Shown: in pieces, positions 14,987 to 28,487 of the stretch | Numbering within the stretch: position 1 is the first letter of the stretch | How the letters are laid out: each line of letters begins with the position of its first letter | Source: Gloeobacter morelensis MG652769 | GTDB taxonomy: Bacteria; Cyanobacteriota; Cyanobacteriia; Gloeobacterales; Gloeobacteraceae | Assembly: GCF_021018745.1 (NCBI RefSeq) | Contig: NZ_CP063845.1 | Span: 620,001 to 684,000 of the forward strand | DNA: 64,000 bases | Direction: 5' to 3' | Made by a program: the position numbers and the translations under genes | Notes under the pieces: model-generated | Told to the model about the DNA's origin: nothing | The model's database searches: none | What the model saw: the letters and a program-made list of their open reading frames with translations, nothing else

Positions 14987-15085
14987 TCCCCAAGGGGGAC
15001 ATCTGCTTATTTTCCATCGCGAGATAGAGGCTGATGGAGCAGTCTATGCAGGAGAAGAGGAAAAGAATCCCAGCCGCTGGTGCCT

Positions 15086-15751
15086 ATGTTTGTCAAGCCC
15101 CACGTCCTCTGGCACGACTGGATGCGCTTTTCGATCGTCTGTGAGCGCTGCCACCGTCGTTTGCTCTTCAGCCAGTGGTCCGGCGGCGGCGGCGAGGAGT
15201 GGCCCCAGATTAAAAAGGCAGAGTGCAGGCTTGAGGCGCGCCATGGGGTGCAACGCGCCGAGCGGTGCGAATCGTGTGGGCGGCCCTTCGCCACAGCCCG
15301 CCGTCCGGTGCGTTCTATGGGTGTGGATGAGTTGCTCGCGCGCTACCGACGGGGCCAGCGCCGTTTCTCAAAACTGGTGCTGGTGGGCGACGATTTGAGC
15401 ACGGTGGCACTGGACGGCGCCCGGATGTTCGAAGCCAACTTGAGCGGCTCGCGTCTTGTGGGAACGGGTTTGCGCTCGGCGGTGCTCACGGGTGCGTCAC
15501 TCGTCGGCGCCGATTTTGCCGCCGCCCGCCTGCAACGCGCGGATCTCAGCGGCGCGGAACTGGTGGGGGCGAATTTGAGCGGCACCGACTTGCAGGGCGC
15601 CAAACTCATCGGCGGCGACCTGCGCGGTGCGAGCCTCTATTGGGCCAACCTCGAAGGGGCGCAGTTGCGCGGAGCCTTGCTCGACGACGCCAGTTTGCGC
15701 GGAGCGCGTCTGCGGGGTGCCATCCTGCCGGACGGCCGGTTGCTCGATTAA
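15086..15751 (+). CDS. Pentapeptide-repeat protein with N-terminal CxxC motifs
   Basis: About 221 residues. The N-terminal 75 residues contain CERC and CESC, a probable zinc-binding unit. Residues 110-215 consist of about twenty A(D/N)LxG pentapeptides (for example ADLSGAELVGANLSGTDLQG), which fold as a right-handed square beta-helix. Such proteins are abundant in cyanobacteria and mostly of unknown function. The stop overlaps that of the permease gene on the other strand by four bases. Confidence 0.88.
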   Translation: MFVKPHVLWHDWMRFSIVCERCHRRLLFSQWSGGGGEEWPQIKKAECRLEARHGVQRAERCESCGRPFATARRPVRSMGVDELLARYRRGQRRFSKLVLVGDDLSTVALDGARMFEANLSGSRLVGTGLRSAVLTGASLVGADFAAARLQRADLSGAELVGANLSGTDLQGAKLIGGDLRGASLYWANLEGAQLRGALLDDASLRGARLRGAILPDGRLLD

Positions 15752-17352
15752 GACTTGTCGGTCCGGCTGCGCCCTTCGGCCCACTGGGCATAGAGCAGCG
15801 CCAGGGCTACCAGGACGTAGCCTATCGCCCAACTGGCCCCTGCGCCGGGGCGCAGGTCGATAATCGTGTCGGTCGCCGTCCAGCGAAAGCTGTGCATCAA
15901 TCCGAACCAGCAGAGGACGGCCCCCGCCAGCGCCCAGAGCGCCCCTTTCCAAAATCGACGCTCGACGATGAAGACGGTGACGGCGGCGAGGATCATCGCC
16001 GAGAAGATAAATCCCTGCTCCAGCGCAAAGGCGCCTTCGATGTACGTGTCGCTCAGGCGAAATTGGGCCGCCAACTCCGGTGTGAGTGGGTTGTCGGGGG
16101 TGGCGAGGCCCGCCGCCCTCAGGGCATTTTTGGCCATCAAGGCGCCCCAGCCTGCGATCCCCGGCAGCAGGCCGATCACCACCGCCGGGGCGTGGGCGGC
16201 GGGGGTGGCGGTAAAAGCCTGGGCGGCGATCACCACCGCGATCCAGAGCACAATCGCCATACCTGCCTCGATGGGCACAAAGTAGGCCACCAGTGCCACC
16301 GTACCGCTTAGGCACAACAGGCTCATCGCCACGCCGTTGAGCACCGAGTAGCCGATGCGCGCCCCGAGCGCCTTCCAGCCGGGATGGCCGATATAAATCG
16401 TCGTCGGAAAGCACGAGCCCGCCACGGCCGCCGCGATCGAACCGAGGCCGTTGACGGCGAGTGAGGGGGCGGTCTCGAAGCGATCCCCCGCCGCCTCGGC
16501 GCTTTCGAGATTTTGCAGACTGCCCACCAGGTTGAACAATCCCATGGGCAGAATAACGCTCAAGTAAGCGCCCAGGGCGGCGCGCCCTTCCCAGAGATCT
16601 CCAAGCCACAACCGCGGCAGATAGAATCCTGCCGGCGCCAGGGCCTCCGCAAAGCGGCTATCGCTCCAACCGACCAGTCCCGTTCCCCAGGCAAGGGCGA
16701 TCCCCAGCAGCACCGAGACCAGTCCCCCCGGCAGCGGCCCGAAGCGCACGCCGCCAAAGTAGGTGAGCAAGATGATCCCCAACGGCAACATCGCGACGAT
16801 TGGGGCGGCGAAGGTGCGAAATAGAAAGCCGAGGGCGATAAACGTCAGGGCGATCCCGGCCAAAGTTGAGAGCAAGGCGGCCCGGGGGGCAAGTTTTCTG
16901 AGGGGGTCAGCAACCCACGCCCCTGCCAGTTCAATCAGCCCCGAACCGAGACAAGCCACCAGTCCTGCCTGCCAGGCCAACTCCGCCGCCTGCTCAGGCG
17001 ACTGGCCCACCCCCATCGCCGCCAGCTTCACCGGCAACATCACCAGAAAGACGTGGGCGAATAAACTCACCGTGTTGATGCCATAGGGCAGTGCCGTCAC
17101 GTCGTCGCGTCCTTCGCGGCGGGCGAGGCGGTCCGCTGTCCAGGCGTAGTACAGGTTGCCCACCAGCAGCGAGAGGGCCACCCCAGGAAGCACCCGCCCG
17201 TAGAGCAACTCGGAGCCGAAGCCGAGCACCCCCCCGCACAGCCCGACGATCAGCAAAACCTGAATGAGATTGTCGAGGGCCAGGCCGAAAAAACCGTCGA
17301 TGTCGCCTCGGACCAGCCAGCGCGGCGCGGATTTGACACGTTTCATACGCAT
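15748..17352 (-). CDS. NCS2-like permease (xanthine/uracil permease superfamily)
   Basis: 534 residues with about twelve to fourteen transmembrane segments. The N-terminal region DGFFGLALDNLIQVLLIVGL and the DVTALPYGINTVSLFAHVF segment resemble putative permeases of the NCS2 superfamily rather than the classic UraA type. Basic residues precede the first helix. The substrate cannot be told from sequence. No purine-catabolic gene is adjacent. Confidence 0.75.
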   Translation of the reverse strand: MRMKRVKSAPRWLVRGDIDGFFGLALDNLIQVLLIVGLCGGVLGFGSELLYGRVLPGVALSLLVGNLYYAWTADRLARREGRDDVTALPYGINTVSLFAHVFLVMLPVKLAAMGVGQSPEQAAELAWQAGLVACLGSGLIELAGAWVADPLRKLAPRAALLSTLAGIALTFIALGFLFRTFAAPIVAMLPLGIILLTYFGGVRFGPLPGGLVSVLLGIALAWGTGLVGWSDSRFAEALAPAGFYLPRLWLGDLWEGRAALGAYLSVILPMGLFNLVGSLQNLESAEAAGDRFETAPSLAVNGLGSIAAAVAGSCFPTTIYIGHPGWKALGARIGYSVLNGVAMSLLCLSGTVALVAYFVPIEAGMAIVLWIAVVIAAQAFTATPAAHAPAVVIGLLPGIAGWGALMAKNALRAAGLATPDNPLTPELAAQFRLSDTYIEGAFALEQGFIFSAMILAAVTVFIVERRFWKGALWALAGAVLCWFGLMHSFRWTATDTIIDLRPGAGASWAIGYVLVALALLYAQWAEGRSRTDKS

Positions 17353-17447
17353 ACTTCAGCCCAATTGCACCCGAAAAGTAGTGGGCTGGGCTACTGTTTT
17401 CGGCTTCCGTCCCCGCACAGTTGCACAATTGTCCATCTGGTGTTTTG

Positions 17448-18530
17448 ATGGAATCATGGACAAGCGTTCATGTTTGGTCGGATGGGGGTGGGTCCGTGGC
17501 CGGTGAATTGACCTTCGACGGTTACGAGGAGTACCTGGGCGGCCTCAAAGCGCGCATCCGCGCCGCCCAGATCCGGTCGGCCCTGGCGGTCAACCGCGAA
17601 CTGGTGGCGCTCTACTGGCAGATTGGCCGCGACGTGCTGCGGCAGCAGCGCCGTCAGGGCTGGGGCAGCAAGGTGATCGATCGCCTCTCGGGCGATCTGC
17701 GCCGTGAATTCCCTGAGATCAAAGGGTTCTCCGTGCGCAATCTCAAATACATGCGCGCCTTCGCCGAGGCTTATCCCGACAAAGGGTTTGTGCAGCAGCT
17801 TGCTGCCCAAATTCCCTGGTTTCACAACTGTGCCATCCTCGATGCCGTCAAAGAGCCTGCCGCCCGCGCCTGGTACGTCCGCCAGACGATTGCCCAGGGC
17901 TGGAGCCGCAGCGTGCTGACCCACCAGATAGACGCTGGACTTTTCGAGCGCCAGGGCGGTGCCGCCACCAACTTTGCGGCCACGCTGCCGTCGGTGCAGT
18001 CGGACCTGGCGCAGCAGGCGCTCAAAGATTCTTATTTGTTCGATTTTTTATCGCTGGGGCCGGCGGCGCGCGAGCGGGATCTAGAGCGGGGGCTGCTCGA
18101 ACACATCCGCAAGTTTTTGCTGGAGCTGGGCCGGGGCTTTGCCTTCGTGGGCAGCCAGTACCACCTGGAGGTGGGCGATCAAGATTTTTATATCGACCTG
18201 CTTTTTTATCACTTCAAGCTGCGCTGCTTCGTGGTCATCGATCTCAAGACCGGCAGCTTCCAGCCCGAATTCGCGGGCAAGCTGGGCTTTTACCTGTCGG
18301 CGGTGGACGACCTGTTGCGCCACCCCGACGATCGGCCGACCCTCGGGCTGATTTTGTGCAAATCGAGCAACCGGGTGATCGCCGAATATACCCTGCGCGA
18401 CGCGCGCCGCCCGATGGGTGTCTCCACCTACGAACTGCTCCCCGAAGAGATCAAGCGCAGTCTGCCCAGCATCGAAGAGATCGAGGCACTTTTGTACCTG
18501 GACTTTGCGGATGGGCAGCACTCGGGCTAA
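17448..18530 (+). CDS. YhcG-type PDDEXK nuclease (DUF1016)
   Basis: About 360 residues. The N-terminal DUF1016 region has the typical LYWQIGRDVLRQQ and GFSVRNLKYMRAF sequences, a helical DNA-binding module. The C-terminal nuclease domain has FYIDLLFYHFKLRCFVVIDL followed by KTG, giving the D...(D)xK core of the PD-(D/E)xK fold. Homologues are often near restriction-modification or other defence genes. Here it stands alone, with nothing defence-like beside it. The ATG at 17448 is chosen; the frame opens further upstream at TTG 17421. Confidence 0.88.
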   Translation: MESWTSVHVWSDGGGSVAGELTFDGYEEYLGGLKARIRAAQIRSALAVNRELVALYWQIGRDVLRQQRRQGWGSKVIDRLSGDLRREFPEIKGFSVRNLKYMRAFAEAYPDKGFVQQLAAQIPWFHNCAILDAVKEPAARAWYVRQTIAQGWSRSVLTHQIDAGLFERQGGAATNFAATLPSVQSDLAQQALKDSYLFDFLSLGPAARERDLERGLLEHIRKFLLELGRGFAFVGSQYHLEVGDQDFYIDLLFYHFKLRCFVVIDLKTGSFQPEFAGKLGFYLSAVDDLLRHPDDRPTLGLILCKSSNRVIAEYTLRDARRPMGVSTYELLPEEIKRSLPSIEEIEALLYLDFADGQHSG

Positions 18531-18731: not shown

Positions 18732-19985
18732 ATGCTACACATTTGCCGCCCGCTGCGGCCGCTTGGATCCGCAAGCCCCTTCCTCGCCCGCCTGTCCTAC
18801 CCCCCCCTGGTCGATGCGCCGTTGCTGCCGGAGTGCCGCAGTTGTGTGATTGTGCCGGTGCGCGACGAGGCGGAACGGATCGAGAGCACCCTCGCCGCTC
18901 TCGCCTGCCAGATCGAACGGCCCGGCTTACCCCTCGATCCGCGCAGCTACGAAGTGATCGTGCTCGCCAACAACTGCCGTGACCAGACGGCACCCATAGC
19001 CCGGCGCTTTGCCGGCGAGCGGCCGCAGTTGCGTCTGCACATCGTCGAGAGGACCCTGTCCCCCGGTGAAGCCCACGTCGGCCGCGCCCGGCAACTGTTG
19101 ATGGACGAAGCCTACCGGCGCTTCGCCGGGGCCGGTAAGGCCAGGGGGATCATCGCCTCCACCGACGGCGACACCCGGGTGGCCCCCGACTGGCTTGCGG
19201 CCACCGCCTTCGAGATCGACCGCGGTGCCGACGCCGTGGGAGGCCGCATCCTCACCGACGACAAAGAGCGGCAGACCCTGGCGGCCCAGGCGCGCCGTTG
19301 CTTTTTGTTCGACGTGGGCTACCAGTATCTGACGGTCCAACTGGAAGCCTGCATCGACCCGGATCCACTCGACGCCTGGCCCCGCCATTATCAGCACTTC
19401 GGCGCCAGCCTGGCGCTGAGCGCCGAGGCTTATGCCCGGGCGGGGGGCTTGCCCGCTGTGCGCTCCCCCGAAGATGTCGCCCTCTACTGCGCCCTGCGGC
19501 GCATCGACGCCGGGATCCGCCACAGCCCGCTGGTGAAAGTGATCACCAGCGCCCGCCGCTATGGACGTGCCGAGAGGGGTCTGGCCGCCCAACTGGCCGA
19601 TTGGAGCACCGTGGGCGCCGGGTACAAGCCGTACCTGGTCGAAGCGGTCGGCAGGACCGAGGAGCGCCTGATCAATCGCTTTCGGTTGCGCCAACTCTGG
19701 CGTCAGCCCCGCAGCCTGGAATCGACCGACGCAGAGGTTGCGGCCCTGGCGACCCGATTGCGGGTGCCGTCCGAACGCCTTGCGGAGGAGTTGTCCGCTT
19801 GCCAAGCTTTTGGCTTGCTCTGGGAGCGGTTGAACCCCGAAGAGCCCGCGAACGCCCCCAAAAGCGAGGTCGAAGAAGCGATCCGGCAGTTGCGCAGGCG
19901 CATTGTCCTCTGGAAGCAGGCACTCAAATCCGCTCGTACAGGTCCAGTCGGTATTGCTGCTCGCGTCGCCCGAGGCGGTGGCTGA
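18732..19985 (+). CDS. Family 2 glycosyltransferase
   Basis: 417 residues, GT-A fold. The UDP-sugar site is visible as CVIVPVRDEAERIESTL (about 38), then VIVLANNC and ASTDGDTRVAPDWLA with the DxD motif (about 140). No C-terminal transmembrane segments are seen, so it is probably cytoplasmic. It converges with the methyltransferase gene and overlaps it by 62 bases. With the next three genes it forms an island whose enzyme set recalls lipo-oligosaccharide synthesis (glycosyltransferase, deacetylase, N-methyltransferase). Confidence 0.85.
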   Translation: MLHICRPLRPLGSASPFLARLSYPPLVDAPLLPECRSCVIVPVRDEAERIESTLAALACQIERPGLPLDPRSYEVIVLANNCRDQTAPIARRFAGERPQLRLHIVERTLSPGEAHVGRARQLLMDEAYRRFAGAGKARGIIASTDGDTRVAPDWLAATAFEIDRGADAVGGRILTDDKERQTLAAQARRCFLFDVGYQYLTVQLEACIDPDPLDAWPRHYQHFGASLALSAEAYARAGGLPAVRSPEDVALYCALRRIDAGIRHSPLVKVITSARRYGRAERGLAAQLADWSTVGAGYKPYLVEAVGRTEERLINRFRLRQLWRQPRSLESTDAEVAALATRLRVPSERLAEELSACQAFGLLWERLNPEEPANAPKSEVEEAIRQLRRRIVLWKQALKSARTGPVGIAARVARGGG

Positions 19986-20481
19986 GCCCCGCGAGCGCGC
20001 CGAAGGCATCGTGCACTTCGTCGCCCCTGAGCGGGTAGTCCCTGGCAAAGGGCGTCCAGTGCACCAAAAGCAGGTGACCTCCAGGTTCCAGGTGCTCCAG
20101 AAGCAACCGCTGGGCCTGGCGCAGTTCACTCCAGGACCAGTAGTAGCCCACCTCCGAGACCAGGGTCAGATCGAACGGTCCGCGCGGGTAGCCCTCGGGC
20201 ACCCGCAACCGCTCGAAGCTTACCTGGGCAAGGGCCCGGCAACGTTCGCGCGCCCGGGTGAGCGCCTTGTCGCACACATCTACCGCCAGAAGCGCCTCGC
20301 AACGTTCGGCGAGGCGGGCGGTGAGCACACCGATCGAGCAACCGATTTCAAACGCCGAGCGGTAGCGGGGCTTGGAGAGGGCGTCGAGGGTCGCCGTGTA
20401 TTTGGCATCCTCGTAGGGGCTGGTCTCGAAGTTCCAGGGATCGGCGTTTTCGCGGTAGAGCGCCTCGAAGTACTCGGGCAT
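19924..20481 (-). CDS. NodS-like SAM-dependent methyltransferase
   Basis: 185 residues. The N-terminal NADPWNFETSPYEDAKY is characteristic of the NodS-like group. Motif I is FEIGCSIGVLTARLA (about 48) and the acidic end of strand 2 is LLAVDVCDKAL. NodS itself N-methylates deacetylated glucosamine. The start at ATG 20481 overlaps the PIG-L stop by one base (TGATG), so it is translated by coupling. Length fits the family. Confidence 0.85.
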   Translation of the reverse strand: MPEYFEALYRENADPWNFETSPYEDAKYTATLDALSKPRYRSAFEIGCSIGVLTARLAERCEALLAVDVCDKALTRARERCRALAQVSFERLRVPEGYPRGPFDLTLVSEVGYYWSWSELRQAQRLLLEHLEPGGHLLLVHWTPFARDYPLRGDEVHDAFGALAGLSHRLGRREQQYRLDLYERI

Positions 20482-21245
20482 CAGCGAGGGGCGTTCGGGT
20501 TGCACGGTGCCTCCAAGTAACATTCCCAGGGGCGCTCGAAGTGGGCGAGCGTCTCGGGGGTGAGCCGAAAACCTTCCGGGTCGTCGTCGATCAGATCGCT
20601 GGTCTGGGAACGGTGGGCAGCCATGGCGGCGCGTTTGAGCGCCAACACCGGGCCGATGGCAAGCCGCCAGATACGGACCTCGCCTTCCATCGGCCGGTGG
20701 AAACGTTCTCCTTGCTCCCACAGCCAGATGGGGTATTCGAGGCTGCGAGCAAAGGCTGCGAAGCCGTCGCTCGCGCGGTGCATCAGGTTCCAGACGGCCC
20801 GGTGATCCGGATGCGGGTCGCGCCGCCAGGGCAGCGCGACGGTGCGCACGGACTCCAGCTGGGCCAGATAGCGGCGGCAACGGCCGAGCGCATCGGCAAA
20901 ATCGGCGTCCCCCTCAAAAGGCACTGCGCCGTCCTTGAGGCCCAAGAACGTGACGGCGGCCGGGGCGACCCCCAGCACCGCGAGGGCGGCGCGCGCCTCC
21001 GCCTCGCGCAGGGCGCGCAGGGCCGCGGGTGGGTAGCACCGGGAGTTGGGGTGGGAGCGGGTGCCGTCGCTCACCACCAGCACCCGCACAGGTAGGCCCA
21101 GCCGGCGCAATAGGGCGATGGTTCCGCCGCAGCCAAGCGACTCGTCGTCCGGGTGCGGGGCGACCACCAGCGTCGAACCGAGGGCGGCTGCCGCCTCGGG
21201 CGGGTGCAGAGGAGTCTCGCCCAGGGCGGCGCTAGTGCCACCCAT
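20481..21245 (-). CDS. PIG-L family deacetylase
   Basis: About 254 residues from ATG 21245 (the frame is open to 21314). The zinc motif PHPDDE is followed by LGCGG, and the second histidine motif is DPHPDHRAVWN, both diagnostic of LmbE/PIG-L N-acetylglucosaminyl deacetylases. The start overlaps the end of the upstream acyl-CoA dehydrogenase-like gene by 14 bases, and its stop is coupled to the methyltransferase start. A sugar N-deacetylation followed by N-methylation is a reasonable inference. Confidence 0.9.
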   Translation of the reverse strand: MGGTSAALGETPLHPPEAAAALGSTLVVAPHPDDESLGCGGTIALLRRLGLPVRVLVVSDGTRSHPNSRCYPPAALRALREAEARAALAVLGVAPAAVTFLGLKDGAVPFEGDADFADALGRCRRYLAQLESVRTVALPWRRDPHPDHRAVWNLMHRASDGFAAFARSLEYPIWLWEQGERFHRPMEGEVRIWRLAIGPVLALKRAAMAAHRSQTSDLIDDDPEGFRLTPETLAHFERPWECYLEAPCNPNAPR

Positions 21246-22473
21246 CGTGCCACAGCGCCTGAATGGGGGCGTTTTGTGCGATGACGTAGGCGCCCAGCTG
21301 GGCAAGGGCCGCATCCGGGGCGGGCTGGCGCAAATAGAGCGTCAGATCCCGCACGATGCGCTCGACCGGGTGCGGGCGCGACAGACAGCGCGCCCCCACG
21401 GACTTGGCGGCCAGTTGCACGACCTGCTGACAGGCGGCTTCGACGGCGGTGCGCACCATGTTGGCGTAGGCCACCAACCCCTCGCCGCCGGCCGGCTCGG
21501 CCGGATTGTCCAACCACCGGTCGATGCGCCCGGCCGCCCCCTGCAACCACAGGCGTCCCCCTTCGACGGCGATGGCAGCGCGGGCCATACGCTCGCGCTG
21601 GTAGGGGTGTTCTTGCCAGCCGCGGTCTCTCAGGTGTCCGCGGGTGCAGTCGAGCAGGGCCGCCGCTCCGCCCAACTGTACCGCCGCGAAGCGCACCACC
21701 CCGGCGGTCAGCCAGGGCTGGCGCCAATAATCGCCGGAAGCGCCCAGCAGGGCGTCTTCTCCCAGCTCGATGCCCGAAAAATCGACTTTGAAGCTGGCCG
21801 AGGCGCGCATCCCGAGGGGTTGCCACCAGTCAGGATCGACGCGATCCGTGTACAGTTCCATCGGAACGATCACCATCTGCCAGCCGCCGTCGGGTCGGGC
21901 CGCGCCGATGATCGGCCGCTCCACCAACCCGGCGCCCGAGGCGAAGGTCTTGGCCCCCTCTAGGCGGTAGCGGTCCCCCGGCAGCGGGACAATCTTCGTG
22001 CCGTCCTCGTCCTCGGTGTTCCAGACGTTGTAAATTTTGCCGCCGTGCACGGCTGCGGCACAGGCCGACTGTTGCTCGCGCGAGCCGAAAATCTGAATCA
22101 GCTGCAGGGCGTTGACGTGCCCCTCGTAGATGCGGCCCACCGCCAGGTTGCCCCATCCTACCTGCTCCAGCACGCTCAGCAGCGCCAGCGTGCGGCCAGG
22201 GCTCACTCCGAGTCCGGCCCCGCCTAAAGATGCGTCAAGAGGAACGGCCAACAGTCCCGCCGCTGCCAGCCGCCGAAATTCTTCGATCGGCACGGCGCCG
22301 TCCTTGTCGATGCGCGCAGCATTGACGGCGCAAAAATCGGCGACTTGCCCGGCTTGGGTGAGCGCTTCGCCCACCGACAGCGGCGCGCAGCCTAAAGCGG
22401 CGGTGTCAAACAACAGCGGAGGGGTAATGTCTTTGCTCCTCTTGCACGGACGATAAGCTCCATGGCAGATCAT
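21232..22473 (-). CDS. Acyl-CoA dehydrogenase-like flavoprotein
   Basis: 413 residues of the acyl-CoA dehydrogenase fold: helical N-terminal domain, middle beta domain with YNVWNTEDEDGTKI and RYRLEGAKTFASGAG (flavin and substrate contacts), and a helical C-terminal domain. It is divergent from true fatty-acid dehydrogenases, and no clear catalytic Glu can be assigned by eye. It is the first gene of the three-gene - strand operon, so a hydroxylase or oxidase role on a sugar- or amine-linked substrate is also possible. Confidence 0.8.
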   Translation of the reverse strand: MICHGAYRPCKRSKDITPPLLFDTAALGCAPLSVGEALTQAGQVADFCAVNAARIDKDGAVPIEEFRRLAAAGLLAVPLDASLGGAGLGVSPGRTLALLSVLEQVGWGNLAVGRIYEGHVNALQLIQIFGSREQQSACAAAVHGGKIYNVWNTEDEDGTKIVPLPGDRYRLEGAKTFASGAGLVERPIIGAARPDGGWQMVIVPMELYTDRVDPDWWQPLGMRASASFKVDFSGIELGEDALLGASGDYWRQPWLTAGVVRFAAVQLGGAAALLDCTRGHLRDRGWQEHPYQRERMARAAIAVEGGRLWLQGAAGRIDRWLDNPAEPAGGEGLVAYANMVRTAVEAACQQVVQLAAKSVGARCLSRPHPVERIVRDLTLYLRQPAPDAALAQLGAYVIAQNAPIQALWHDGWH

Positions 22474-22534: not shown

Positions 22535-22580
22535 CAAAAAAGCCGTCTGCCGGTCCTGCAGCGCAGGACCGGCAGACGGC
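22535..22580 (-). terminator. Strong hairpin terminator
   Basis: Perfect 18-base arms at 22542-22559 and 22563-22580 with a three-base loop, next to a run of six A on the + strand (U-tract on the - strand). It lies 3' of the exported-protein gene at 22597, which it should terminate. Confidence 0.9.
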
Positions 22581-22596
22581 CACACCGAGCTGACGT

Positions 22597-23379
22597 TTAC
22601 CTCAGGATCTGGGGCTCGCCGTAGATGAAGTCGTCCATGGTGACGACATCGTAGCCACGTTTGCCATCGGTTGCCGTGGCACTCGGAGCAATGTTGCCGC
22701 TGGTGATCCGGACCCGATAGATGCGCTTATTGGCAAAACTGGCGCCGATGAAGGCGAGGCTTTGCTGGTTGTTGGCTCCCTGCTGGAAGGGGACCGGCAG
22801 GCTGAGCAGCAGATTGTCCTTGGCGTCGTAGTACTCGATTTTGCTGGTGTTGGTGTCCACGTCGGTGAAGACGGCGCCAAAGGCGCTGACGGTGGCCGGC
22901 GTCTCGGTACCGGGAAGGAAGAAAAAGACGTCCGTAAATTTGCTGTCGATGGCTGTGAACAGCTTCTGGGGGCTGAAGATGCGAAATTCGGCGGGATAGG
23001 TGGGGTTGAGGTTGCCGAACAAGATGGGCGTGCCGGTGCCGTCATTGGCGCTCACCTGGAAGCCCTCGCCGGGAGTAGAAAAGACGACGCCACGGGCGGA
23101 ATTGACGTTAAAAAAGTCGGGCGGGAAGGCATTCGGAGCCGAAGAATCGTCCGGTACACCATCCCAGTTCACCTCGCGCCGACCGTCAGCAAACGAACCG
23201 CCGGCACCATTGTTGGCGCCGCCGATATCGGCCCGAAACAAGTCGACTGCCGATTGAATTGCGCTGGCGTCGGGGCCGGTTGCCTGACGGACAAGCGGGG
23301 CAGCCGAAGCGATAACGGGTGCAGACATTAGGGCGGCCAAGGTGACCGTAGCCCATCCAAAAAATGGTAAGGATTTCAT
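22597..23379 (-). CDS. Exported hypothetical protein
   Basis: 260 residues with a classical signal peptide (hydrophobic 9-24, cleavage probably after ASA). The mature part looks beta-rich (TVSAFGAVFTDVDTN, KIEYYDAKDNLLLSLPVPFQ) and ends with TMDDFIYGEP. This resembles PEP-CTERM-like or lectin-like beta-sandwich proteins that lack the sorting tail. Function unknown. A strong terminator follows, so it is probably monocistronic. Confidence 0.85.
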   Translation of the reverse strand: MKSLPFFGWATVTLAALMSAPVIASAAPLVRQATGPDASAIQSAVDLFRADIGGANNGAGGSFADGRREVNWDGVPDDSSAPNAFPPDFFNVNSARGVVFSTPGEGFQVSANDGTGTPILFGNLNPTYPAEFRIFSPQKLFTAIDSKFTDVFFFLPGTETPATVSAFGAVFTDVDTNTSKIEYYDAKDNLLLSLPVPFQQGANNQQSLAFIGASFANKRIYRVRITSGNIAPSATATDGKRGYDVVTMDDFIYGEPQILR

Positions 23380-25749: not shown

Positions 25750-25811
25750 AGTTCATAGCCAGCGGGTAGTATTTGTTTAGCCTTCCTCAGGTACATCGAC
25801 GGCCGCTGCCT

Positions 25812-28487
25812 ATGAGGTCGAAGCCCCAGTTCTGGTTGATCTACCTGCTGATTTTTGGTCTGTGCCTTCCCACCGCGCCGCCGGCCGCTGTGGCGCAAAC
25901 GGCTGCCGATAATCAAGCCGCCCGGTTGCTCGCTCAGGGAGACGCCAAACTGCAGCGTCAGGACTTTGCCGGGGCGCTCGAGGAGTATACTCGCGCCATC
26001 CGCCTCGATCCCAATAGCGCCCTGGCCTATAGCAATCGGGCGCGTGCCCGCTCCAGGCTCGGGGATCTGCAGGGGGTGATCGCCGATTGCACTGAGGCTA
26101 TCCGCCTCGACCCGGACCTGGCGGCGGCCTACGGCAACCGGGGCAATGCCCGCGCCGCTTTGGGCGATCGCACGGGGGCAGCGGCGGACTACTCAGAAGT
26201 GATCCGCCGCGATCCGAACAATGCCCTGGCGCTGCACAACCGCGCCCTGGCCCGCGCCGCTTTGGGAGATACCGCCGGGGCGGTGGGCGACCTCAAAAAG
26301 GCGGCCCAACTGGCGAAGGCCCAGAGAGACAGCGCTTTGTACCAGTCGGCGACCAGCCGCATCCGCCAGTACGGCACCCCGACCGCCGCCTCTGTCCGTA
26401 CTCCCAAAGCAACCGCCGTCCCCCGCAGCAGATCGGCCGCCAAATCCGCACCGACCGCCGAACCCGAATGGCAGCTGCGGGTGCCGATGGAGCCCAGATC
26501 CGTGCCTTTGATGCTGGGTCTGGGCATTGGTGAAGGGGGCGGGCCGGGACTCGCCATCGTCAACTGGGTGGCAAGCCAGACGCGCCATAGCGGTCTGCGC
26601 ACCGGGGATCGTTTGGTGGCCCTCGATGGACGGGCCGTGGACAGCACCGCGGATCTCTCGGCGATGCTCAGGCGCCGTCGGCCGGGCGAGCAGGTCGCCC
26701 TTACCTACCGGCGCGGCGGCAGCGAACGGACGATCAACCTGGCGCTGCTCAATTCGGTAGTGCCGCTGGAGCCCGAGGAGCCACCCCGGCCGCTCGGTGC
26801 GCTGCTGGTCCTCCCGCCTTCTCCCCGACTGGAGGCTGAGCAGATCTTCGGCTGGGGAAACGTGCGGGCTGTCGAAGGCCTAGAAAGTGAGCTGCTCATC
26901 GTGGTTGGGTCGGCAGCGAGCGAAGCCGTGCTGCAGGAGCGGACAGGAGCACTCTTTCGACAGTTGCAGCCTTTCGGGATCCGGGCGCTTGCAGTCGAGG
27001 TGGAGGCGCCGGCGCAGCCCTGGCGGGCCGTGATAAGCGAGACCGGGGTGCAGGTGCAGGCGGCTCAACTGCCCTGGCGCAGCGCGCCCGTGACGATCGA
27101 GGCCGGTACTTACCTGCCGGTGCAACTGGACTGGCCGACCGACGGATCGCCACCCAACGCAGGACAGGACGTCACAGGCAGGGTACTCTACGACGCGCGC
27201 GACCGGCGGGGCATACCGCTTGTTCGGGCGGGCACTGCGGTACAGGGGCAACTCGTTCCGACAGCCCCGCTGGGAGTGCGGCTGGTACTCACAAGTCTTG
27301 GCGCGAATCCCGTGGCGGCTGCATCGGAGGTGCTCCCGCTCAAAGAAGAGTTCGAGTTGCGTAGCGGCCTCTACGGTGGGGGCGACCTGTTCAACCGCTA
27401 TTTCGCCACGGTCTACGACGGTCAGGTGGTGGGGGCGCGTCTGCGGGAGCCGGTGGTGCTGGAGGGAGACGCTCCGGGTGAACCGTCCGAGGCAACTCCT
27501 GCCCGCACAGCGGTAGTCGGAGAGTTGCTGAGCGGCAACCTGCCGGGGCGCCGCGATCCACAACAAGCTCTCGCTTTTTATAACCAGGGTGTGCGGGCTG
27601 CTGCCGCCTCGCAATGGCAATCGGCGGCGGCGCTATGGCAGGCTTCGCTGATATTGTTGCCGTCGCAACCGGCGCGTTCCGCCCTGGGATGGGTCTACGA
27701 GCGGATGGGCCAGGAGCTGTTGGTACGGGGCGATGCGGCCACGGCGGCAGCCTGGCTGGAACTGGCTGTGCACCTGCGCCCCAGGAGCGTCAACGCTTCG
27801 CGGTTGCTGAGCGCCGCCTACGGCCGTCTGCTCGCACCCAAAATATCGGCCAACCGCTCGCCGGTTCAGCTGGCCTACTACCGCCATCTGGCCGCGCGCT
27901 TCGATCTTTCCATGGGCGAAGAACTCGGCGGCTCCGGGCGGCTGTTTGCCCGCGAGCCCGTTCGTCCGACTACAGCGGATTACATCGATTCGAGCCTGGT
28001 GCGCGGTCAGGTGGTCCGCTTTACGCGCCTGCCGATTCGGCTCTATACCGGCGGCGCCCCCGAACCGGAGATGGCCGCCGCCGTCTGGCGGGCCGCCCTC
28101 AAATGGCAGACCGGCAGCGGCGGCGCAGTGCGATTCGTGCGGGTGGAAGATCCCCTGCAGGCGGATATCGCCGTGGTTTTCGTCGCGGCGGACCGCGAAG
28201 GACGGGCGGGCCACGCCAGTTTCACCGGTCTGGGCAACCGCATGCCGATGCTCAAGGTCACCCTCGGCCTCGGGCACCTGCTGGGTGAGCGACCGGGCGA
28301 TTGGCCCGAGTACATCCAGATGCTCGCGGTGCATGAACTCGGCCACGCCATTGGACTTTGGGGCCACAGCGACGACCCCGAAGACATCATGTACCCCGAG
28401 ATGCGCGGTGTGCACGAGCCGTCGGGCCGGGATCTGCAGACGCTCCGGCGTCTGTACGCCATGCCAGCTGGGATCACTCGACCTTAA
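25812..28487 (+). CDS. Secreted TPR-PDZ-matrixin metalloprotease
   Basis: About 891 residues from ATG 25812. A signal peptide (hydrophobic 8-27) is followed by about four tetratricopeptide repeats (30-165), a proline/alanine linker, a PDZ domain (about 225-315, GLRTGDRLVALDGRAVDS), a long middle region, and a C-terminal metzincin domain. The zinc site HELGHAIGLWGH is at 841-852 and is followed by the Met-turn DIMYP, as in matrixins. It probably acts in the periplasm or outside the cell. The domain order is unusual. The start lies about 60 bases after the IS1 remnant. Confidence 0.88.
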   Translation: MRSKPQFWLIYLLIFGLCLPTAPPAAVAQTAADNQAARLLAQGDAKLQRQDFAGALEEYTRAIRLDPNSALAYSNRARARSRLGDLQGVIADCTEAIRLDPDLAAAYGNRGNARAALGDRTGAAADYSEVIRRDPNNALALHNRALARAALGDTAGAVGDLKKAAQLAKAQRDSALYQSATSRIRQYGTPTAASVRTPKATAVPRSRSAAKSAPTAEPEWQLRVPMEPRSVPLMLGLGIGEGGGPGLAIVNWVASQTRHSGLRTGDRLVALDGRAVDSTADLSAMLRRRRPGEQVALTYRRGGSERTINLALLNSVVPLEPEEPPRPLGALLVLPPSPRLEAEQIFGWGNVRAVEGLESELLIVVGSAASEAVLQERTGALFRQLQPFGIRALAVEVEAPAQPWRAVISETGVQVQAAQLPWRSAPVTIEAGTYLPVQLDWPTDGSPPNAGQDVTGRVLYDARDRRGIPLVRAGTAVQGQLVPTAPLGVRLVLTSLGANPVAAASEVLPLKEEFELRSGLYGGGDLFNRYFATVYDGQVVGARLREPVVLEGDAPGEPSEATPARTAVVGELLSGNLPGRRDPQQALAFYNQGVRAAAASQWQSAAALWQASLILLPSQPARSALGWVYERMGQELLVRGDAATAAAWLELAVHLRPRSVNASRLLSAAYGRLLAPKISANRSPVQLAYYRHLAARFDLSMGEELGGSGRLFAREPVRPTTADYIDSSLVRGQVVRFTRLPIRLYTGGAPEPEMAAAVWRAALKWQTGSGGAVRFVRVEDPLQADIAVVFVAADREGRAGHASFTGLGNRMPMLKVTLGLGHLLGERPGDWPEYIQMLAVHELGHAIGLWGHSDDPEDIMYPEMRGVHEPSGRDLQTLRRLYAMPAGITRP

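What the first reader, a model, noticed from the sequence alone, without database searches (positions are those of the whole stretch)
18732..22473. Glycosyltransferase / NodS-like methyltransferase / PIG-L deacetylase / ACAD island
Four genes in tight array: GT2 on the + strand, and a - strand operon of acyl-CoA dehydrogenase-like, PIG-L deacetylase and NodS-like methyltransferase with overlaps of 14 and 1 bases. The GT2 and methyltransferase stops overlap by 62 bases. The enzyme logic (sugar transfer, N-deacetylation, N-methylation) is analogous to Nod-factor decoration, though the deacetylase is from a different family and no acyltransferase is seen. The product is unknown to me; a modified glycolipid or amino-sugar is an inference.
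Basis: partly seen in the sequence, partly recalled or inferred. Interest (0 to 1): 0.7.

Follow-up and report, generated by a model that had tools for sequence, protein, structure and literature searches.

The report
Widespread amino-sugar tailoring stress cassette
Four adjacent enzyme genes in a Gloeobacter-like cyanobacterium form a gene set that is kept together in at least six bacterial phyla and often sits among stress-survival genes, so it probably makes an unknown modified amino-sugar compound that helps cells survive drying or oxidative stress.

Summary
The four genes exist as described, and the stated overlaps (14, 1 and 62 bases) are exact. The array is not chance. In 59 related genomes the same 11 carry all four genes side by side and 48 carry none of them. 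A scan of 84,980 species returned 80 loci (capped), and all carry the cassette, nearly always as ACAD>PIG-L>MT> <GT. Further copies occur on plasmids of Pseudomonadota, Deinococcota and Actinomycetota. Functional coupling is supported by a PIG-L–MT fusion in one relative and by a NodB-type (CE4) deacetylase in place of PIG-L in Rubrobacter. The "acyl-CoA dehydrogenase" lacks both classical catalytic-glutamate positions; by profile and fold it is nearest to DszC/MsuC/nitrososynthase-type flavin monooxygenases. On plasmids the cassette often sits beside katE, otsAB, Ku/LigD and similar genes, and alphaproteobacterial copies lie among sigma-EcfG-type general-stress promoters. Best reading: a horizontally spread cassette that attaches, N-deacetylates, N-methylates and probably oxidises an amino sugar, used in stress survival. 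It is not a Nod-factor system; the Nod analogy holds for chemical logic, not membership. The product is unknown, and I found no open-access paper describing the cassette.

The parts
18732..19985 (+). Family-2 glycosyltransferase, soluble GT-A fold, DxD (D145/D147) and ED (E247/D248) invariant; first start codon uncertain
   Evidence: Pfam PF00535; model pLDDT 91.6; best structural matches WrtF Z 22.0 (rmsd 2.1, 180 residues), TarS, TarP; no transmembrane helix evident in the model
19924..20481 (-). NodS-like class I SAM-dependent methyltransferase (185 aa), probable amino-sugar N-methyltransferase
   Evidence: PF05401 63 bits; NodS equivalog 77.7 bits versus cut-off 300; PDB 4isc 1e-27, NodS 3ofj 7e-18; SAM motif E45/G47/G51 invariant
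20481..21245 (-). PIG-L/LmbE-family zinc de-N-acetylase (254 aa), active site H31, D33, D34, H148 invariant
   Evidence: PF02585 85 bits; PDB relatives TT1542 and diacetylchitobiose deacetylases
21232..22473 (-). Acyl-CoA-dehydrogenase-fold flavoprotein, probably a group D flavin monooxygenase rather than a dehydrogenase; first codons uncertain
   Evidence: profile best hit DszC 8.9e-33, MsuC 1.6e-28, KijD3 1.2e-20; TdsC Z 40.9; invariant YLRQPxxD motif in place of the catalytic YEGT
22541..22581 (-). 19-bp hairpin with T-tract, terminator-like, ending the unrelated upstream gene 22597-23379 and so separating it from the cassette
   Evidence: number of terminator-like sites in the region not above shuffles, but this stem has 19 pairs, 14 of them GC

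Best explanation
A dedicated, mobile four-enzyme biosynthetic cassette. The GT2 transfers an N-acetyl-amino sugar (probably GlcNAc-like) to an unknown acceptor. The PIG-L enzyme removes the N-acetyl group and the NodS-like enzyme methylates the freed amine. The ACAD-fold flavoprotein then oxidises the product, most plausibly at or next to the nitrogen. The product is an N-modified amino-sugar glycoside or glycoconjugate that many bacteria make as part of general stress (oxidative/desiccation) survival. Shown: the four genes as one conserved, co-occurring unit, intact catalytic motifs in three enzymes, loss of the dehydrogenase glutamates in the fourth, a PIG-L-MT fusion, a NodB-type replacement, and stress islands with sigma-EcfG-type promoters around alphaproteobacterial copies. 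Inferred: substrate, order of steps, the oxidation, and the physiological role in Gloeobacter itself.
For: Co-occurrence: MT, ACAD, GT and PIG-L relatives sit adjacent in the same 11 of 59 cyanobacterial genomes and in none of the other 48. Synteny: 80 of 80 loci from genome contigs, 64 with the identical order and orientation. Pairwise distances of the four families correlate 0.87-0.94. PIG-L-MT fusion in one 453-aa frame in Gloeobacterales ES-bin-141. In Rubrobacter a Polysacc_deac_1 (NodB/CE4) gene takes the PIG-L place and a Pyr_redox_2 flavoprotein is added. Flavoprotein nearest to FMN monooxygenases. Stress context: catalase within 10 kb in 9 of 25 plasmid loci; others have otsAB, GlgE, Ku/LigD, Dps, CsbD. 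In 10 alphaproteobacterial loci, 21 GGAAC-N16/17-NGTT sites versus 5.7 expected; 16 lie 25-180 bp upstream of a gene versus 8% of positions (P 4e-14), including the Paracoccus GT, Sulfitobacter ACAD and Sulfitobacter catalase starts. Multi-GT operons and glf nearby point to a larger glycan in some hosts.
Against: In cyanobacteria and most Bacteroidota no stress gene recurs beside the cassette, so the stress role rests mainly on Pseudomonadota plasmids, a sample biased towards plasmid cargo. No radiation/desiccation motif was found near the cassette in four Deinococcus loci. The NodB replacement and the fusion are one case each. No substrate is known. N- versus O-methylation and the oxidation are inferred from homology only. 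The correlation of distances may partly reflect shared organism phylogeny. The control region on the Bradyrhizobium plasmid (L118) also had a high density of EcfG-type sites, though it too carries CsbD and PRC-barrel genes.
Confidence: 0.55

Rival explanations
1. The cassette decorates a surface polysaccharide or glycolipid (EPS, LPS, capsule or membrane glycolipid) and has no particular stress role. Its neighbours on plasmids are coincidental cargo.
For: Extra glycosyltransferases, GT4 and UDP-galactopyranose mutase (glf) are co-operonic or adjacent in sphingomonads and Deinococcus; GT1/GT4 genes are the commonest recurrent family next to cyanobacterial copies (4 of 91); the GT resembles cell-surface GTs such as WrtF, TarS and TarP by fold.
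Against: No flippase, polymerase or export gene recurs at the cassette; catalase, otsAB and EcfG-type promoters recur; the core four genes are kept without any other glycan genes in most genomes.
Confidence: 0.22
2. The flavoprotein is an amino-sugar N-oxygenase like KijD3/DnmZ/ORF36, so the product carries a hydroxylamine, nitroso or nitro sugar, i.e. a small specialised metabolite rather than a structural glycan.
For: Profile of 54 homologues matches KijD3 1.2e-20, DnmZ 4e-18, ORF36 nitrososynthase 6e-18, above most true dehydrogenases; PIG-L would supply the free amine; catalytic glutamates absent.
Against: DszC and MsuC, which oxidise sulfur, score higher and structural Z values are nearly tied with true ACADs (40.9 versus 38-39); the C-terminal histidine motif of FMN monooxygenases (LHNPP in 5gj7) is LRQPx here; no dedicated flavin reductase except in Rubrobacter.
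Confidence: 0.15
3. A Nod-factor-like lipochitooligosaccharide pathway.
For: GT2, de-N-acetylase and NodS-like N-methyltransferase in one cassette; NodB-type enzyme in Rubrobacter.
Against: Not NodS by the equivalog score (77.7 versus 300); GT is soluble and shows no NodC-level match; no acyltransferase at any locus read; taxonomic spread far beyond symbionts.
Confidence: 0.03
4. Low-molecular-weight thiol biosynthesis (bacillithiol- or mycothiol-like), with PIG-L as BshB/MshB.
For: PIG-L is nearest to BshB2 among NCBIfam equivalogs (54 bits).
Against: Far below the cut-off of 195; BshC absent from this genome while the positive controls rang; no cysteine ligase at the loci.
Confidence: 0.03

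Closest known systems
Rhizobial Nod-factor tailoring (NodC, NodB, NodS, NodA)
   Same: GT2, sugar de-N-acetylase and NodS-like methyltransferase encoded together; one Rubrobacter cassette even has a NodB-family deacetylase
   Different: Deacetylase is PIG-L not CE4 in nearly all copies; methyltransferase far below the NodS equivalog score; GT is soluble; no acyltransferase; an added flavoprotein; found in six phyla and often in stress islands
DszC/TdsC, MsuC and amino-sugar nitrososynthases (KijD3, DnmZ, ORF36), i.e. group D flavin monooxygenases
   Same: ACAD fold, best profile matches, no catalytic glutamate
   Different: Own invariant C-terminal motif YLRQPxxD and YEGHxNA motif; substrate unknown; usually no dedicated flavin reductase alongside
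PIG-L deacetylases of thiol and chitin-derived sugars (BshB, MshB, archaeal diacetylchitobiose deacetylase)
   Same: Fold family and zinc site
   Different: Below every equivalog cut-off; own invariant SHPxS, YxxW and QxxxxxxDD motifs
Structural-genomics methyltransferase 4isc (listed in the PDB sequence table only as 'Methyltransferase')
   Same: Closest solved relative of the MT (1e-27)
   Different: No function reported in the tool output

Membership tests
Nod-factor biosynthesis | NodS orthologue | tested here: not met
   NF041650 77.7 bits versus cut-off 300; family-level PF05401 is met
Nod-factor biosynthesis | NodB (CE4) deacetylase at the locus | tested here: not met
   PIG-L instead; CE4 only in the Rubrobacter copy
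Nod-factor biosynthesis | NodA acyltransferase in the genome | tested here: inconclusive
   PF02474 gave no match in the own genome, but no control genome rang either
Nod-factor biosynthesis | NodC-type membrane chitin synthase | tested here: inconclusive
   No NodC model among the NCBIfam hits; model is a soluble GT-A protein; the NodC model itself was not searched separately
Acyl-CoA dehydrogenase (enzymatic) | Catalytic glutamate in the C-terminal YEGT motif or on the preceding helix (ER) | tested here: not met
   Position before R261 is I/V/L/A/W/T in the counts listed, and YEGT is replaced by YLRQ in 87-88 of 88 rows
Acyl-CoA dehydrogenase fold | Overall fold | tested here: met
   Model pLDDT 89; Z about 38-41 to ACAD-fold proteins
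Group D flavin monooxygenase | Closer to DszC/MsuC/nitrososynthases than to dehydrogenases by profile | tested here: met
   8.9e-33 (DszC) and 1.6e-28 (MsuC), versus 1e-22 for the best chain named simply acyl-CoA dehydrogenase (4u83) and 6.5e-19 for SCAD; met for DszC/MsuC, only comparable for the nitrososynthases (about 1e-20 to 1e-18)
Group D flavin monooxygenase | O2-dependent oxygenation with reduced flavin | not testable with these tools
   -
PIG-L de-N-acetylase | Zinc site HxDD...HxDH | tested here: met
   H31, D33, D34, H145, D147, H148 invariant in 33 homologues
Bacillithiol/mycothiol biosynthesis | BshB/MshB equivalog score and BshC in the genome | tested here: not met
   54 versus 195 bits; BshC absent with positive controls ringing
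Alphaproteobacterial general stress regulon (EcfG) | GGAAC-N16/17-NGTT promoter upstream | tested here: met
   Directly upstream of cassette genes in Paracoccus (55 bp), Sulfitobacter (138 bp) and the Bradyrhizobium GT (28 bp); neighbourhood enrichment P 4e-14. Not found directly upstream in the sphingomonad copies and not applicable to the window's organism
Deinococcus radiation/desiccation regulon | RDRM palindrome near the cassette | tested here: not met
   No site with 5 or fewer mismatches in L020, L017 or L108; one at 5 mismatches far from the cassette in L115.

The most novel reading that the evidence does not exclude
An undescribed stress-protective metabolite class: an N-methylated, oxidised amino-sugar glycoside or glycolipid made by a mobile cassette shared by desiccation- and radiation-exposed bacteria of six phyla, acting beside trehalose, catalase and DNA end-joining in general stress islands.
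Probability: 0.3. Interest if true: 0.82.

Novelty: new variant of a known kind. Interest (0 to 1): 0.62.

Why it matters
A gene set this conserved and this patchily distributed, with four nameable enzyme activities and an unknown product, is a ready-made route to a new natural compound. Its repeated company with catalase, trehalose and DNA-repair genes and with general-stress promoters suggests a protectant shared by very different hardy bacteria, including clinical Acinetobacter plasmids. The membership of the set can be predicted from sequence, so deletion plus metabolomics in a tractable laboratory host would test it directly.

Tried and rejected
Paper searches (10 used) found no open-access paper holding PIG-L with NodS or LmbE with NodS, and none describing the cassette; subscription journals are not covered. 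I first thought the 780-aa Deinococcus ACAD was a GT fusion; its N-terminal half is not a GT (weak GH53 match 0.012; by eye a GH1-like barrel). RDRM motif in Deinococcus: not found near the cassette. Sigma-70 promoter scan at the window locus: nothing. Phage and defence libraries gave only weak generic methyltransferase and PIG-L matches for the cassette. Neighbour Pfam tallies in cyanobacteria and Bacteroidota showed no recurrent partner beyond the four genes, apart from a few SDR/GMC and GT1 genes. Thiol biosynthesis rejected.
Full report
WHAT IS THERE. The four ORFs are real and the stated overlaps are exact. On the plus strand lies a family-2 glycosyltransferase (18732-19985). On the minus strand lie, in order of transcription, an ACAD-fold flavoprotein (22473-21232), a PIG-L de-N-acetylase (21245-20481) and a NodS-like methyltransferase (20481-19924). 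Pfam assigns all four above the curated cut-offs. A strong hairpin at 22541-22581 ends the preceding minus-strand gene, so the three minus-strand genes look like their own unit. The window lies in a 5.1-Mb genome whose closest relatives are Gloeobacter-like (the genus name is my inference from the relatives).

IT IS A UNIT. I searched the same 59 genomes with each of the four proteins. The same 11 genomes hit at very low E-values, the four hits are adjacent in each, and the other 48 genomes have none at that level (MT and PIG-L have a few weaker unrelated paralogues). In a draw of 386 cyanobacterial genomes only 11 (3%) have the methyltransferase, so this is an accessory, patchy trait. A scan of one genome per species for 84,980 prokaryotes gave at least 591 relatives. 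The best 80 were kept and all 80 carry the cassette: 64 as ACAD>PIG-L>MT> <GT, and the rest lacking one recognisable member (several at a contig end) or with a changed GT position. The organisms include Nostoc, Brasilonema, Chroococcidiopsidaceae, Hymenobacter, Spirosoma, Mucilaginibacter and a Verrucomicrobia MAG. Plasmid records add Bradyrhizobium, Paracoccus, Sulfitobacter, Sphingomonas, Novosphingobium, Sphingobium, Roseomonas, Komagataeibacter, Cupriavidus, Pandoraea, Paraburkholderia, Acinetobacter, five Deinococcus, Rubrobacter and Kitasatospora; a few of these are incomplete or split. Pairwise distances of the four families correlate at 0.87-0.94. In a Gloeobacterales MAG the PIG-L and MT are one 453-aa frame.

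WHAT THE ENZYMES ARE. GT: soluble GT-A fold, pLDDT 91.6, nearest solved folds WrtF (Z 22.0, rmsd 2.1, 180 residues), TarS and TarP; DxD and ED motifs are invariant. MT: nearest solved chain 4isc (1e-27), then NodS (7e-18), with amine methyltransferases among the weak hits. PIG-L: zinc site invariant, relatives include diacetylchitobiose deacetylases. ACAD-like: a profile of 54 homologues hits DszC (8.9e-33) and MsuC (1.6e-28) first. The nitrososynthases KijD3, DnmZ and ORF36 follow at about 1e-20 to 1e-17, comparable with or above most true dehydrogenases. The model (pLDDT 89) is closest to TdsC/DszC (Z 40.9), though Z values of true dehydrogenases (38-39) are not far behind. Both places where acyl-CoA dehydrogenases carry their catalytic glutamate are changed. 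I therefore read it as a flavin-dependent oxygenase acting on the sugar product, not a fatty-acid enzyme; this is inference from homology.

A NATURAL SWAP. The Rubrobacter copy has no PIG-L at the locus. A Polysacc_deac_1 gene (the NodB family) stands upstream of its ACAD in the same direction, and a Pyr_redox_2 flavoprotein is inserted. A non-homologous deacetylase in the same place argues that the step is amino-sugar deacetylation. The added reductase-like gene fits an oxygenase needing reduced flavin. This is one case.

STRESS CONTEXT. On plasmids the cassette repeatedly lies beside catalase (9 of 25 loci read), otsA/otsB, GlgE, Ku/LigD, Dps, CsbD, PA2169-type proteins or spore photoproduct lyase. 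In four sphingomonad loci (L110, L113, L117, L129) a katE-type catalase gene stands directly beside an operon with three or four GTs. In ten alphaproteobacterial loci there are 21 exact GGAAC-N16/17-NGTT sites (sigma-EcfG type), against 5.7 expected. Sixteen of them lie 25-180 bp upstream of an annotated gene, against 8% of positions (binomial P 4e-14). They include sites upstream of the Paracoccus GT, Sulfitobacter ACAD, Sulfitobacter catalase, Bradyrhizobium GT and Bradyrhizobium Ku. Two 50-kb catabolic control regions of the same plasmids had 1 and 0 sites; a third control (Bradyrhizobium L118) had 7, but it too contains CsbD and PRC-barrel genes. The EcfG consensus is from established knowledge. 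In cyanobacteria and Bacteroidota the flanks share almost nothing besides the cassette, so the stress role there, including in the window, is extrapolated.

MECHANISM (committed reading). GT2 attaches an N-acetyl-amino sugar to an unknown acceptor; PIG-L deacetylates it; the NodS-like enzyme methylates the amine; the flavoprotein oxidises the product. Probability of this general scheme about 0.55; of a stress-protective product about 0.5; of N-oxidation in particular about 0.15-0.2. glf and extra GTs beside some copies suggest that in some hosts the cassette acts on a larger glycan or glycolipid.

MEMBERSHIP. It works partly like Nod-factor tailoring but is not a member: no NodS-level score, PIG-L instead of NodB, no acyltransferase seen at the locus, soluble GT. 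It is not thiol biosynthesis. It is a member of the broad families PF00535, PF05401, PF02585 and the ACAD fold.

VERDICT. The important addition is that this is a widespread, uncharacterised, horizontally moving cassette tied, in Pseudomonadota at least, to the general stress response.

Noticed in passing
L020 5657-7996, L128 2881-5229, L017 4227-6599: In D. radiodurans, D. gobiensis and D. wulumuqiensis the ACAD is about 780 aa: in D. radiodurans a glycoside-hydrolase-like N-terminal half (weak GH53 match, by eye GH1-like) is fused to the ACAD domain; the other two have a similar length.
   Followed up: partly
L128 7948-10183, L115 11878-14299: UDP-galactopyranose mutase (glf) and another GT follow the cassette GT in Deinococcus gobiensis and D. 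proteolyticus.
   Followed up: partly
L106 8567-9769: Rubrobacter cassette contains a Pyr_redox_2 FAD oxidoreductase between MT and GT, a possible electron donor for the flavoprotein.
   Followed up: partly
L110 and L129: Novosphingobium resinovorum pHR1a carries two diverged copies of the multi-GT cassette, both next to a catalase gene.
   Followed up: no
L103, L104, L111: Acinetobacter soli, ursingii and baumannii records from human sources carry the cassette; the A. soli and A. ursingii copies are beside trehalose genes (and a catalase in A. ursingii), and the A. baumannii record has integron-type resistance genes about 5-10 kb away.
   Followed up: partly
window 17421-18530: YhcG/DUF1016 PDDEXK nuclease beside the cassette, matching PADLOC candidate defence family PDC-S02 (1e-150).
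   Followed up: no
window 25773-28487: Large protein that by eye combines TPR repeats, a PDZ-like stretch and a HExxH metalloprotease-like end.
   Followed up: no
window 15080-15751: By eye a pentapeptide-repeat protein, next to a 534-aa permease-like gene (15748-17352) with no Pfam match.
   Followed up: no
G052:C5:194105-195244: One cyanobacterial ACAD copy carries an in-frame TAG inside the match, either decayed or an assembly error.
   Followed up: no
L118 (Bradyrhizobium pS11L-1 100000-149999): Intended control region has 7 EcfG-type promoter sites in 50 kb with CsbD and PRC-barrel genes: another stress island on the same conjugative plasmid.
   Followed up: no
L099 and L093: Cassettes with ACAD, MT and GT but no recognisable deacetylase between them (Verrucomicrobia MAG, Spirosoma validum).
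   Followed up: partly
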